Shown one piece after another: positions 30,561 to 34,710 of a stretch of 64,000 nucleotides of DNA. Within the stretch, counting starts at the first letter, position 1, and every line of letters starts with the position of its first letter. The notes below the pieces were generated by a model. It searched no databases, was not told the DNA's origin, and saw only the letters and a program-made list of their open reading frames with translations. Source of the DNA: Schwartzia succinivorans DSM 10502 (GTDB lineage: Bacteria > Bacillota > Negativicutes > Selenomonadales > Selenomonadaceae); assembly GCF_900129225.1 (NCBI RefSeq), contig NZ_FQUG01000007.1, positions 1 to 64,000 of the forward strand. The letters run 5' to 3'. The position numbers and the translations under genes are program-made.

Positions 30561-30774
30561 AGAAAATCTCCGTTAACGATTTTATTGCTCTGCAAAATTC
30601 TTATCATTTCAACACACATTATATAATTTCGTTTCGCATTTAAAGTATACCTTTCTATATCAAAAAAAATCAACAAACCGCCCCATACATATCAATCGTG
30701 AATCCTATTGCGTGAGGTTCTTTGTTTCTGTATTATTAGATAAGAAAAATCAATTTTCAAACGGAGGTATCATC

Positions 30775-31326
30775 ATGCGTATTCTCGGCGTAATTCTCGG
30801 TGTGCTGCTTCTAGTCGCAGGCTGCTTTGTCGGTATTTACAATTCGCTTAAGACAGCCCGCATCGACGTAGATGCACAGTACGGTCAGGTAGAAAACCAG
30901 ATTCAGCGGCGCGCTGATTTGATTCCGAACCTTGTCAACACTGTCAAGGGCTACATGCAGTACGAGGAAAAAACCTTGAAGGAAGTCACGGAGGCCCGCA
31001 CGAGAGTCATGGGCGCAGGCTCGCCGGAGGAAATGGCTGCTGCAAACGACCAGCTTTCCGGAGCACTCGGCCGCCTGATTGCGGTGGCTGAGAATTATCC
31101 CCAGCTCAAGTCCGATGCGCATTTCACTGAGCTTATGCGCGAAATCGCGGGCTCAGAAAACCGCATTGCTGTAGCGCGGCGCGACTACAATGACGCCATC
31201 AAGCGATACAACGTAAAAATCGAAACCTTCCCGGGCAACATGTTCGCAGGAATGATGGGCTATACACCGATGAAACAGTTCGCAGCAGAGGAAGCTGCAC
31301 ACGCTGTACCGCAGGTGAAGTTCTAA
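30775..31326 (+). CDS. LemA family protein
   Basis: The 183-residue protein has an N-terminal membrane helix (MRILGVILGVLLLVAGCFVG) and the LemA core: YNSLKTARIDVDAQYGQVENQIQRR, DLIPNLVNTVKGY, AVAENYPQLKSD, ENRIAVARRDYNDAIKRYN. I start at ATG 30775 after ACGGAGGTATCATC. It probably faces the outside and works with the two TPM proteins that follow (13 and 12 bp gaps). The group's function in envelope upkeep is poorly defined. Confidence 0.92.
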   Translation: MRILGVILGVLLLVAGCFVGIYNSLKTARIDVDAQYGQVENQIQRRADLIPNLVNTVKGYMQYEEKTLKEVTEARTRVMGAGSPEEMAAANDQLSGALGRLIAVAENYPQLKSDAHFTELMREIAGSENRIAVARRDYNDAIKRYNVKIETFPGNMFAGMMGYTPMKQFAAEEAAHAVPQVKF

Positions 31327-31338
31327 GGAATCCGCAGG

Positions 31339-32136
31339 ATGAAAAAGATTGCCTTATTTCTTCTTTGTCTTGCCGCATGTCTGACGTTTTTCCTTCCTGC
31401 ATGCCACGCAGCGCAGGCTCTTCCCCCTGCACCGACACAGGACATTTATCTTGTGGACAACGCAGTTATGGTGTCGCCCGAGGACAGGCAGACACTTCTT
31501 GCAGTCGGCAAAGAGCTTGACGAAAAAACCGGAGCGCAGATTGTCGTTGTTACGATGAATACGCTTGGCGGAGAAAATCTGGAGGACTACGCGAACCGAC
31601 TGTTCCGCTCATGGGGAATCGGCAGAAGGGAGAAAAATAACGGTGTTCTGCTCCTGATTGCTAAGGAGGACAGAAAATTCCGTCTGGAGGTAGGCTACGG
31701 ACTTGAGGGGGTCATTACCGACGGCTTTGCCGGTGAGGTTCTCGACGATATGAAGGTCTATTTCCGTGACGGGGATTATTCTCCTGCCATCGTCAAGGCT
31801 TATGGGAAGCTCGCGCGGAAAGCCTACGAAGCAGAAAACATGGAGGTTCCCAAAAGTGTGGAGGACGCAGAGGATGAGTTTCCTTTCTGGCTTGGGATTC
31901 TGTTTCTCGTCGTGCTCAGCGCTATCGCCCTTCTCCTGATTTTCTTTTTCTATCGGGTCATAATGGGAATTCTTCTTTGGGGACTTTATCTTTTGAGCTC
32001 AGGCTTTATTGACTGGCGGTACGACTTTGATCTGAGTTTCAAAGACTTCCTTGGTTTCGGAGGAGGCTCATCGGGCGGACGCGGTGGCTTTGGCGGCGGA
32101 AGCTCGGGTGGCGGCGGTTCTTCCGGCGGATGGTAA
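31339..32136 (+). CDS. TPM-domain membrane protein, copy 1
   Basis: This 265-residue protein has a signal peptide (KKIALFLLCLAACLTFFLPA), a TPM domain (DIYLVDNAVMVSPEDRQ, GAQIVVVTMNTLGGENLEDYANRLFRSWGIG, NGVLLLIAKEDRKFRLEVGYGLEG, ITDGFAG), two membrane helices after residue 180, and a Gly/Ser-rich tail (FGGGSSGGRGGFGGGSSGGG). It belongs to the YgcG-like group that accompanies LemA. It is paralogous to the next gene. Confidence 0.9.
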   Translation: MKKIALFLLCLAACLTFFLPACHAAQALPPAPTQDIYLVDNAVMVSPEDRQTLLAVGKELDEKTGAQIVVVTMNTLGGENLEDYANRLFRSWGIGRREKNNGVLLLIAKEDRKFRLEVGYGLEGVITDGFAGEVLDDMKVYFRDGDYSPAIVKAYGKLARKAYEAENMEVPKSVEDAEDEFPFWLGILFLVVLSAIALLLIFFFYRVIMGILLWGLYLLSSGFIDWRYDFDLSFKDFLGFGGGSSGGRGGFGGGSSGGGGSSGGW

Positions 32137-32148
32137 AAGGAGCAAACT

Positions 32149-33027
32149 ATGAATATAAAAATAAAACGGCTTTTCTCTGTTTTTGTTTTTCTGTTCGCGT
32201 GGCTTACTGTGCTTCTGCCCTCGTGCAACGCGGCAGAGATTCCTCCCATGCCCACGCAGGATATTTATATCCAGGACAAAGCAAACATGGTCAGTGCGGA
32301 GGACAAGGCAAAAATTCTTGCCATGGGCAGAGCTCTCGACCAAGCGACACGGGCTCAGATAGCAGTGGTGACGATAGATTCACTGGACGGGGATAACCTT
32401 GAAGAATACGCTAATAAGCTCTTCCGCAACTGGGGCCTGGGCGACCAGAAGAAAAACAACGGTGTCCTGCTTCTCATTGCAAAGAATGACAGAAAGTTCC
32501 GCATCGAGGTTGGCTACGGCCTTGAGGGAACCATTACCGACGGCTATGCCGGTACGGTGCTTGATGGCATGAAAGCTCAGTTTCGGGCAGGAAACTACTC
32601 CCCCGCAATCCTCGCAGCCTACGGACAGCTTGTCCGAAAAGCATACTCAGCAGAGGGCCTGACCCCTCCTGCGGAAGTAGAAACGGCTGTGTCGGCGGCA
32701 AAAACAAAGCAAAACGTCGTAACCGAGGAAGATGTGGACGATATGTCATTTTGGGAATTAGCCGTGGGCGCCATAATCGGAATAGGCCTTATCGGGGTTC
32801 TCATCTGGTGCCTCTGGCAGATGTTCTATACGCTTCTCATGGGACTCAGCTACCTGCTCCTGCTTCTTTCCTCCGGCGCTATCGACTTTACGGATAAATT
32901 CCCCACCGGCGGCGGTGGCGGCAGTGGCGGATACTCCGGCGGCGGTCATTCCGGTGGCGGCCATCACTCCTCCGGCGGCGGTCACGGTGGCAGCTCCGGC
33001 GGTGGCGGTTCTTCCGGCGGCTGGTAA
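32149..33027 (+). CDS. TPM-domain membrane protein, copy 2
   Basis: The 292-residue paralogue of the preceding gene has the same order: signal peptide, TPM domain (DIYIQDKANMVSAEDKAK, EVGYGLEG, ITDGYAG), hydrophobic helices near 200-245, then a Gly/Ser/His-rich tail (GGYSGGGHSGGGHHSSGGGH). The His residues in its tail are absent from copy 1 and could bind metal. Ribosome site AAAAGGAG precedes it. The terminator at 33034 closes the operon. Confidence 0.9.
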   Translation: MNIKIKRLFSVFVFLFAWLTVLLPSCNAAEIPPMPTQDIYIQDKANMVSAEDKAKILAMGRALDQATRAQIAVVTIDSLDGDNLEEYANKLFRNWGLGDQKKNNGVLLLIAKNDRKFRIEVGYGLEGTITDGYAGTVLDGMKAQFRAGNYSPAILAAYGQLVRKAYSAEGLTPPAEVETAVSAAKTKQNVVTEEDVDDMSFWELAVGAIIGIGLIGVLIWCLWQMFYTLLMGLSYLLLLLSSGAIDFTDKFPTGGGGGSGGYSGGGHSGGGHHSSGGGHGGSSGGGGSSGGW

Positions 33028-33079: not shown

Positions 33080-33107
33080 GCGTTCATAATATAACTCGGC
33101 AAAAGAT

Positions 33108-33262
33108 GTCCCCCACTTCTGCCCTAAAGGACTAGCTGCGCGTCGTAAGTGGGGGCTGGGACTAATAACAGGCGGTGAGCATATCTCTCCCGCCTCGCGC
33201 GACGCGAAGCTAGTGCCATTGGCAAAATGCCGCAGAGGAAAGTTTGCCTATGGCAAACTTTA
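33108..33262. repeat. Structured intergenic element with interleaved inverted repeats
   Basis: CCCCCACTT (33110-33118) pairs with AAGTGGGGG (33147-33155). ACTAGCT-GCGCGTCG (33131-33145) pairs with CGACGCG-AAGCTAGT (33200-33214). GGCGG (33171-33175) pairs with CCGCC (33190-33194). AAAGTTTGCC pairs with GGCAAACTTT (33239-33262). The first two pairings cross, as in alternative folds or a pseudoknot. It could be a dispersed repeat, a small RNA, or the end of a lost element. Confidence 0.55.
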
Positions 33263-33317
33263 ATTGAAGGCATTATAATTAATCATTCGATGATTCAGGT
33301 TGATGGCAATTTTGAAA

Positions 33318-33418
33318 TCTGATAAAATGATTTTAGTAAATTTGATAAAGTCACTTTTACGAATTTGATAAAATAAATTTAGCATATTTGATAAAATCGA
33401 TACCATAAATTTGTGAAA
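33318..33418 (+). repeat. Five repeats of TTTGATAAA at an exact 23-bp period
   Basis: Copies begin at 33318 (TCTGATAAA), 33341, 33364, 33387 (TTTGATAAA) and 33410 (TTTGTGAAA). The units also share an A/T-rich second half. They end 14 bp before the start codon of the DUF4143 ATPase. The exact period looks like iteron-type or operator repeats bound by a protein; a binding factor is not known. Confidence 0.75.
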
Positions 33419-33432
33419 ACGAGGTGCGTAAA

Positions 33433-34710
33433 ATGCAAAACAATGACTACCGCTCCAGAATTATCGACAGCATAATAAAAGACCATCTTGAAGCGTTCGG
33501 CGCTGTCTGCATTGAAGGACCGAAATGGTGTGGAAAGACATGGACTGCCATGCACAATTGCAACAGTCAGTTTATGCTGGGTGATTCAAAAGATAATTTT
33601 CAAAACCGTAAGCTGGCACAGCTTGATCCCGCTATGATTTTGAAGGGAGAAGCCCCACGACTCATTGATGAATGGCAGGAGGTTCCGAGTATTTGGGATG
33701 CTGTACGCTATGAAGTGGATAGTCGTCAGGCACAGGGGCAGTTCATTCTGACCGGCTCATCTACCCCGAAAAGAAAAGGCATAATGCACAGCGGTGCAGG
33801 GCGCATCGTTCCTCTCCGAATGCGTACAATGTCCCTATGGGAATCCGGCGATTCTGACGGGAAAGTATCTCTTCACTCCTTATTTACCGGAGACGTCGAG
33901 ACACAGCTGACCGGAGACGTCGAGCTGAAAAAAATAGCGCAGCTCATTGTCCGCGGCGGCTGGCCCCAAAGTCTGACGGTTCCGAAGGAAAAATACCACC
34001 TTCTCCCCCAGGGTTATATTAACGCCATAATCGATGACGGCTCTAACCGCCTTGATGAAATAAAAAGAGACAGCTCAAAAATGATTCGCCTGCTGAAATC
34101 TTTGGCAAGAAACGAATCAACGACCGTATCAAACAAGACACTCAAAAAAGATATTATGGATGTTGATGGCATTGCTATAAGCGACCCCACCATTGCAGAA
34201 TATCTGGATGTCTTTCGCAGATTGTATCTAATCGAAGACCAGCCACCTTTCAGCCCCGGTGTTCGTTCATCGGTACGAGTCAAGCAAAGCAGCAAGCGTC
34301 ACCTGACCGACCCCTCCATTGCCTGCAGCCTGCTTGGGCTGAACGAAGAAGGCCTTATCAACGACCTTAATACAATGGGTTTCCTGTTTGAATCCATGTG
34401 CGAGCGCGACCTGTGGCTTTATGCTATGCCCCACGGTGGCAAGCTCTTCCATTATCAGGACTATCGTGAAAAAGAAATCGACGCGATTGTGGAAATGCCA
34501 AACGGCGACTGGGGCGCGTTCGAAATCAAACTGGGCGCCCATCAAATTGATTCCGCCGCAGAAAATCTTTTGAGCATCCGCGCCGATATTGCAAAAGAAG
34601 GCAAAGGAAAAGAACCAAAATTTCTCTGTGTCCTCTGTGGCTTAAGCAATGCCGCATATAAACGCGAAGATGGTGTATATGTTGTTCCCGTTACCTCGCT
34701 GAAACCGTAA
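33433..34710 (+). CDS. AAA ATPase with DUF4143 domain
   Basis: The protein of about 425 residues has Walker A GPKWCGKT, Walker B APRLIDEWQEVP, sensor LTGSS, then a DUF4143 C-terminal part with a PD-(D/E)XK-like motif (EKEIDAIVEMPNGDWGAFEIKLG). Such ATPases are common in gut anaerobes; the role is unknown and a defence or competence role has been guessed. I choose ATG 33433, 8 nt after ACGAGG, not the GTG at 33424. In-frame TGDVETQLTGDVELK shows a small duplication at residues around 155-168. Five 23-bp repeats sit directly upstream. Confidence 0.85.
   Translation: MQNNDYRSRIIDSIIKDHLEAFGAVCIEGPKWCGKTWTAMHNCNSQFMLGDSKDNFQNRKLAQLDPAMILKGEAPRLIDEWQEVPSIWDAVRYEVDSRQAQGQFILTGSSTPKRKGIMHSGAGRIVPLRMRTMSLWESGDSDGKVSLHSLFTGDVETQLTGDVELKKIAQLIVRGGWPQSLTVPKEKYHLLPQGYINAIIDDGSNRLDEIKRDSSKMIRLLKSLARNESTTVSNKTLKKDIMDVDGIAISDPTIAEYLDVFRRLYLIEDQPPFSPGVRSSVRVKQSSKRHLTDPSIACSLLGLNEEGLINDLNTMGFLFESMCERDLWLYAMPHGGKLFHYQDYREKEIDAIVEMPNGDWGAFEIKLGAHQIDSAAENLLSIRADIAKEGKGKEPKFLCVLCGLSNAAYKREDGVYVVPVTSLKP

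What the first reader, a model, noticed from the sequence alone, without database searches (positions are those of the whole stretch)
33318..33418. Five TTTGATAAA repeats with exact 23-bp period
Starts at 33318, 33341, 33364, 33387, 33410 are equally spaced and end just before the DUF4143 ATPase start. Regular repeats like this bind oligomeric proteins. They could be an autoregulatory operator or a plasmid-type iteron left by a mobile gene.
Basis: seen in the sequence. Interest (0 to 1): 0.62.

Follow-up and report, generated by a model that had tools for sequence, protein, structure and literature searches.

The report
ATPase that reads its own repeats
A very common bacterial ATPase-nuclease of unknown purpose, listed only as a possible anti-phage gene, carries in front of it a row of short DNA repeats at a fixed 23-base spacing that its own DNA-reading helix appears to recognise, which gives a concrete handle on how this family is controlled.

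Summary
The array is real. Five copies start at the stated positions with exact 23-bp spacing, but only three read TTTGATAAA; the unit is about AAAT[CT]TGATAAAAT. None of 2000 shuffles scored as high. It precedes a solitary AAA_14/DUF4143 ATPase (PADLOC PDC-S01).

It is not a local curiosity. Of 150 distinct relatives with enough upstream sequence, 149 have a 23-bp array, down to about 32% identity, although the repeat sequence differs widely. A second DUF4143 subfamily uses 33 bp in 24 of 29.

The ATPase itself very probably reads the array. Residue 252 covaries most with the repeat and exceeds all 600 tree simulations over 424 columns. It lies at the start of a predicted recognition helix. 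In a separate clade it again ranks first of 417, with a partly shared code: Asp/Glu with C-S-G, Pro/Gln with T-A-A.

In 86 of 127 promoter-bearing arrays the -10 box sits in one register of the repeat. I conclude autoregulatory operator, most likely autorepression. Binding, repression and defence are untested. Eight literature searches in the held library found no description.

The parts
33315..33328 (+). repeat core 1, AAATCTGATAAAAT; its TAAAAT (33323-33328) is also the -10 of a promoter-like match
   Evidence: sequence; promoter scan (TTGATG at 33300, 17-bp spacer, TAAAAT)
33338..33351 (+). repeat core 2, AAATTTGATAAAGT
33361..33374 (+). repeat core 3, GAATTTGATAAAAT
33384..33397 (+). repeat core 4, ATATTTGATAAAAT
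33407..33420 (+). repeat core 5 (degenerate), AAATTTGTGAAAAC
33300..33328 (+). promoter-like match TTGATG-17-TAAAAT, -10 inside repeat 1 (weak: 4 matches in the scanned region, 2.8 expected)
33433..34710 (+). AAA_14 + DUF4143 ATPase gene (PDC-S01); alternative start GTG at 33424
33517..33540 (+). Walker A codons, GPKWCGKT (residues 29-36)
34183..34221 (+). codons of the predicted recognition helix, residues 251-263
   Evidence: helix 251-263
34186..34188 (+). codon of residue 252 (Pro here), the position that covaries with the repeat
34249..34275 (+). codons of the presumed wing loop, residues 273-281 (274 and 276 covary more weakly)
34474..34530 (+). E348-x-D350 ... E364-x-K366, PD-(D/E)xK-type nuclease motif
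   Evidence: conservation; family statement in PMC12988326

Best explanation
The array is the private operator of the downstream ATPase gene. The ATPase is a STAND/AAA+-like NTPase with a winged helix and a PD-(D/E)xK-type nuclease domain. It binds its own array head to tail, one protomer per unit, through the winged helix; the start of the recognition helix (residue 252) reads a base triplet of each unit (T-A-A here). Because the units are locked in register with the gene's own promoter in most members, binding most likely represses transcription until the protein changes state or is consumed. Shown here: array, period, conservation, promoter register in relatives, covariation, predicted helix. 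Inferred: physical binding, one protomer per unit, and the sign (repression rather than activation).
For: Conservation: 78 of 78 relatives with at least 150 bp upstream have best period 23 or 46, against 2 of 195 control ORF upstreams and about 4% of shuffles; of 75 downstream stretches 3 were above threshold, none at 23/46. Wider set: 149 of 150. Plasmid- and phage-collection relatives: 11 of 12 fetched. The ruler differs by subfamily: 33 bp in 24 of 29 of a second subfamily, homologous over the full length. Covariation: unit base 18 x residue 252, z 13.2 in 84 sequences; 0 of 600 tree simulations reach it in any of 424 columns. Separate clade of 61 sequences: residue 252 ranks 1 of 417, 0 of 500 simulations at that residue. 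Code shared between clades: D/E with C at the first position (37/40; 19/22) and G at the third (37/40; 22/22); P/Q with T first (8/9; 11/12) and A third (9/9; 11/12). Residue 252 lies in helix 251-263 of a model with mean pLDDT 91; residues 251 and 252 rank 5 and 22 of 425 in variability beside conserved T253 and Y257. Promoter: -10 start in phase 18 or 19 of the unit in 86 of 127, with the -35 overlapping a core.
Against: No binding or expression data. In the window itself the promoter is not in the usual register: the matches put the -10 in repeat 1, or upstream of the array at 33250-33279, and the number found (4) is near the shuffle expectation (2.8). In the independent-pairs test other residue-base pairs reach similar or smaller p-values (u8 x 424, u18 x 383, u20 x 274, u18 x 185). 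In clade B, 18 of 500 simulations reach the residue-252 value somewhere in the protein. Asn at 252 goes with C-T-G in clade A but not in clade B. The arrays usually have three to five units, up to seven, more than simple repression needs. Some DUF4143 subfamilies lack direct-repeat arrays.
Confidence: 0.75

Rival explanations
1. The array is mainly an assembly platform: the ATPase polymerises on it to be activated, parked or licensed, and effects on its own promoter are secondary or positive.
For: Usually three to five units per array, up to seven, and about 10 in L086, more than an operator needs. The nearest solved folds include STAND-type NTPases that form wheels. By hand calculation at 10.5 bp per turn, 23 and 33 bp are two or three turns plus about 69 and 51 degrees, both near the 60 degrees of a six-fold AAA+ spiral (inference only).
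Against: A unit is locked to the -35/-10 elements in most members, which points at transcription. Palindromes, not arrays, precede many members of other subfamilies.
Confidence: 0.15
2. Plasmid- or element-type iterons: the ATPase initiates replication or transposition at the repeats.
For: Iteron-like look; DNA similarity between relatives often covers only array plus gene (134 of 148 pairs); some relatives are on plasmids (12 records).
Against: No replication or transposase family matched; the array is tied to the gene's own promoter region; no conserved neighbour (at most 4 of 53 loci share a flank family); no conserved DNA beyond the stop codon in most pairs.
Confidence: 0.04
3. A host regulator, not the ATPase, binds the array.
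For: Not excluded by the array alone.
Against: The unit differs between paralogues in one genome, and its bases covary with the ATPase's own predicted recognition helix in two clades.
Confidence: 0.04

Closest known systems
PADLOC PDC-S01 (phage defence candidate, single gene; AAA_14 + DUF4143)
   Same: The window protein matches the PDC-S01 models (best E 2.6e-60) and both Pfam domains; PMC12988326 describes PDC-S01 as encoding an ATPase domain fused to the PD-(D/E)-X-K superfamily (passage).
   Different: No upstream operator, period or recognition code was described in the passages read; that paper calls PDCs unvalidated.
Archaeal STAND-like ATPases SSO1545 (2fna) and PABY2304 (2qen)
   Same: Closest solved folds over residues 1 to about 302: Z 15.0, rmsd 4.7 A, 261 aligned (2qen) and Z 13.4, rmsd 4.8 A, 260 aligned (2fna).
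   Different: About 16% identity; I recall no operator array for them (recall, not searched).
Iteron arrays of plasmid replication initiators (RK2 TrfA type, recalled)
   Same: Head-to-tail direct repeats of about two helical turns read by winged helices, often with autoregulation (recalled).
   Different: Here the protein is a AAA+-like NTPase with a nuclease-type domain, the array is at its own promoter, and the repeat sequence diverges between members while the period stays.
Autorepressor operators with fast-changing specificity (phage repressor immunity groups, recalled)
   Same: Private operators with covarying recognition helices (recalled).
   Different: Long tandem arrays with a subfamily-specific ruler, and an ATPase-nuclease instead of a small repressor.

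Membership tests
PDC-S01 / AAA_14-DUF4143 | Match to the family models | tested here: met
   PADLOC PDLC04790 E 2.6e-60; PF13635 102.3 bits and PF13173 51 bits, over cut-offs
PDC-S01 / AAA_14-DUF4143 | Intact Walker and PD-(D/E)xK motifs | tested here: met
   C33 G34 K35, D79 E80, E320, E348, D350, K366 invariant and E364 nearly so in 50 sequences
PDC-S01 / AAA_14-DUF4143 | Anti-phage activity | not testable with these tools
   PDCs described as unvalidated in PMC12988326 (passages)
Autoregulatory operator | Sites overlap the gene's own promoter | tested here: met
   -10 in phase 18/19 of the unit in 86 of 127 members with a promoter match; weaker in the window itself
Autoregulatory operator | The gene product recognises the sites | tested here: inconclusive
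   Strong covariation in two clades; no binding assay
Autoregulatory operator | Expression changes with the product | not testable with these tools
   no expression data
Plasmid iteron system | Repeat-binding protein belongs to a replication-initiator family | tested here: not met
   Pfam gives only AAA_14 and DUF4143
Plasmid iteron system | Repeats act as an origin | not testable with these tools
   no experiment
STAND / NB-ARC NTPases | NBD - helical - winged-helix fold | tested here: inconclusive
   Matches to 2qen, 2fna and NLR/CED-4 chains at Z about 10-15 over residues 1 to about 302; fold similarity only

The most novel reading that the evidence does not exclude
PDC-S01/DUF4143 genes are minimal solitary cassettes (array plus gene, about 1.4 kb) that form private recognition groups, like phage immunity or plasmid incompatibility groups: each copy assembles only on its own array with a subfamily-specific ruler (23 or 33 bp) and thereby keeps itself silent or its nuclease restrained, and the repeats diversify because co-resident copies must not cross-react.
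Probability: 0.2. Interest if true: 0.9.

Novelty: new variant of a known kind. Interest (0 to 1): 0.76.

Why it matters
PMC12988326 calls PDC-S01 the fourth most common defence across all prokaryotes and PDCs unvalidated (passages), and PMC13356809 reports it as the most frequent individual locus in its rumen genomes, 10,358 occurrences (passages). A family-wide operator with a readable protein-DNA code gives a testable entry into its control and function: it says which DNA the protein should bind, which residue decides it, and predicts sites for many uncharacterised genes. It also shows a case in which the spacing of a DNA array is conserved across phyla while its sequence is not.

Tried and rejected
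Array restricted to this locus or to chance: rejected. Phage origin: no relative in the viral collection for this query; 7 unannotated 'Bacteriophage sp.' fecal scaffolds match in the phage collection, of which I fetched 4 of 7 (H13-H16); of 12 plasmid records I fetched 8. RNA-level element: in most members of the large clade the predicted -10 follows the last unit, so most of the array would lie upstream of the transcript; in the window this is not settled. Other targets in the genome: a two-unit pattern with up to 3 mismatches is found only here. A conserved partner gene: none. Covariation at other positions: u16 x 373, u15 x 87 and u19 x 323 also exceed most simulations (reached in 3, 8 and 7 of 600) and lie outside the presumed DNA-binding part; left unexplained. 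Palindromes before the GARQ/GPRQ subfamily: 10 of 14 loci L028-L041 have one that none of 50 shuffles reached, but some may be terminators of the gene before; not pursued. Fold of the C-terminal domain: not searched on its own; the nuclease label rests on conserved motif residues and on PMC12988326.

Literature: DUF4143 gives 1 paper (listing only); DUF4143 with tandem repeat and upstream 0; the query AAA_14 was read as aaa14 and the 20 listed of 570 were unrelated; PDC-S01 3 papers, two read as passages; PF13635 0; a search for PDC terms, one paper of it read as passages; two searches combining ATPase and repeat terms 0. The library holds open-licence papers only and no preprints, so absence there is weak evidence.

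Rows dropped: 2 of 80 loci for short upstream, of 178 hits over 200 bits 153 were kept as full length and distinct, and 3 of these had short upstream; searches use 84 sequences of at least 50% identity whose array passed a score and a 2.2-copy filter; one search uses 61 that passed the same kind of filter (the number before the filter was not printed) and includes relatives, 3 of 32 loci lacked the subfamily's Walker motif, 136 arrays that passed the filter, 127 with a promoter score above a cut-off that I set by hand.

Full report
OBSERVATION. Five copies start at 33318, 33341, 33364, 33387 and 33410 with exact 23-bp spacing; three are exact TTTGATAAA, the first is TCTGATAAA and the last TTTGTGAAA. 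The shared unit is about AAAT[CT]TGATAAAAT. The upstream self-match score is 27.0 at lag 23, and the best of 2000 dinucleotide shuffles is 17.4. Within the genome a two-unit pattern with up to 3 mismatches is found only here.

THE GENE. The array ends at the start of a 425-residue protein (ATG 33433; a GTG at 33424 is possible) with AAA_14 and DUF4143 domains and a strong match to PADLOC PDC-S01. No NCBIfam or PHROGs family and no PDB sequence was found at the thresholds used. Walker motifs and E320, E348, D350, E364, K366 of a PD-(D/E)xK-type site are invariant or nearly so in 50 relatives. The AlphaFold model (mean pLDDT 91.2) has a helix at 234-245 and one at 251-263, then short strands around a loop of lower confidence, the layout of a winged helix (the label is my reading). 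The nearest solved folds are PABY2304 and SSO1545 and, behind them, NLR and CED-4 chains.

PARALOGUES IN THE SAME GENOME. The genome has 9 DUF4143 genes. Besides the window gene, L003 has a different 23-bp array (GCCAAATGGATAAG), and L006 and L007 have 33-bp arrays with other sequences; L009 has palindromes; L004, L008 and L010 show no direct array, and L011 none either but a palindrome.

CONSERVATION OF THE RULER. Of 80 relatives from the genome collection, in several phyla by record title, 78 had at least 150 bp upstream, and all 78 have 23 or 46 as best period, 69 above the 99% shuffle score. Controls: none of 75 downstream regions was above threshold at 23/46, and 2 of 195 upstream regions of other ORFs had best period 23/46. 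In a wider set of 150 distinct relatives it is 149, including 9 of 9 below 38% identity; the exception is L023. Relatives in plasmid and phage collections show it in 11 of 12 fetched, among them Bacteroides, Collinsella, Prosthecochloris, Lentilactobacillus and Actinomyces records; the exception, L275, has the Walker motif of another subfamily. The repeat sequence meanwhile changes almost completely, from TTTGATAAA to CACGGAATG to GCCAATCGTCGGAA.

A SECOND RULER. A second DUF4143 subfamily (Walker A G[PA]RR[VI]GK[ST]) has best period 33 in 24 of 29 loci, 34 in two, 32 in one, and other values in two. It is homologous to the first over its length, and its model has the same order of parts by my reading. 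Members of the GARQ/GPRQ type lack direct arrays but often have palindromes. So the spacing goes with the protein subfamily. By hand, 23 and 33 bp at 10.5 bp per turn are whole turns plus about 69 and 51 degrees, near 60; whether this reflects a six-fold spiral is speculation.

WHO READS THE ARRAY. I put the units of 84 relatives (at least 50% identity) in one register and computed mutual information with the protein columns. The top pair is unit base 18 with residue 252 (z 13.2); residues 250 and 251 and the presumed wing residues 276 and 274 follow among others. A null in which the base evolves on the protein tree without coupling reaches this value in 0 of 600 runs over all 424 columns. In 42 independent pairs, residue 252 changes in 12 of 16 pairs in which the base changes and in 2 of 26 in which it does not (p about 1e-5); four other pairs have p-values between 1.1e-6 and 1.3e-5 in this weaker test. 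In a separate clade of 61 more distant relatives residue 252 again ranks first of 417 columns; 0 of 500 simulations reach it at that residue and 18 of 500 anywhere. The code is partly shared: Asp/Glu go with C at the first position of the triplet (37 of 40; 19 of 22) and G at the third (37 of 40; 22 of 22); Pro/Gln go with T (8 of 9; 11 of 12) and A (9 of 9; 11 of 12). Asn goes with C-T-G in the first clade (24, 27 and 26 of 27) but not in the second (4 sequences). The window has Pro252 and T-A-A. Residues 251 and 252 are among the most variable of the protein (ranks 5 and 22 of 425) next to conserved T253 and Y257. This is what a specificity position of a recognition helix looks like, and it makes the ATPase itself the likely reader of the array.

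PROMOTER REGISTER. Of 136 arrays, 127 carry a promoter-like match above my cut-off, and in 86 the -10 starts in phase 18 or 19 after the core start, most often at +18 from the last scored core (47); the -35 (TTGCAA, TTGTAA, TTGACA) overlaps the start of that core, which fills the spacer. The distance between the hexamer starts is then 23, the array period. In the 33-bp subfamily many promoter-like matches also overlap the array. In the window the picture is less clean: a match with its -10 in repeat 1, and one just upstream at 33250-33279, with the number found near expectation.

SPREAD. In 134 of 148 pairs of relatives with at least 72% DNA identity over the gene, similarity ends at the stop codon (median -3) and begins near the gene start or within the array (median 0, 5th percentile -113); 14 pairs also share flanks. 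No flank ORF family occurs in more than 4 of 53 loci. The unit that is shared between backgrounds is gene, or array plus gene.

MECHANISM. The best-supported reading is an autoregulatory operator read by the ATPase's winged helix, probably repressing its own promoter. Binding, stoichiometry and sign are inferred. An assembly platform is the main rival. The repeats' divergence under a fixed period suggests private recognition groups; in the 13 genomes listed with 2 to 4 arrays each, no two units in one genome look alike, but those paralogues are also distant from each other, so this is not a test.

NOVELTY. Searches of the held open-licence library gave nothing on repeats before DUF4143 or PDC-S01 genes (with the limits told under Tried and rejected). 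Operators, iterons and recognition codes are known kinds; a family-wide, subfamily-specific ruler with a drifting code on this ATPase-nuclease family is a new variant.

Noticed in passing
L006 and L007 (window genome), L236-L265: A second DUF4143 subfamily with 33-bp upstream arrays of diverse sequence (24 of 29).
   Followed up: partly
L009, L028-L041, L145 upstream regions: Other DUF4143 subfamilies are preceded by long palindromes instead of direct arrays; some may be terminators.
   Followed up: partly
L086 (Succinivibrio dextrinosolvens), -305 to -60 of the match: An array of about 10.7 similar 23-bp units, the longest seen.
   Followed up: no
L253, -180 to -134 of the gene: An exactly duplicated 23-mer in front of a 33-bp-subfamily gene, with a similar string upstream in L244; origin unclear.
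   Followed up: no
window 30712-33027: A LemA family gene followed by two TPM-domain genes in a row, both ending in Gly/Ser-rich tails.
   Followed up: no
window 33100-33160: An inverted repeat (CCCCCACTT ... AAGTGGGGG) between the TPM gene and the array, possibly a dispersed repeat.
   Followed up: no
L055, L089, L093 flanks: A second DUF4143-like ATPase (GARQTGKT type in L055) lies near the 23-bp type gene in 3 of 53 loci.
   Followed up: no
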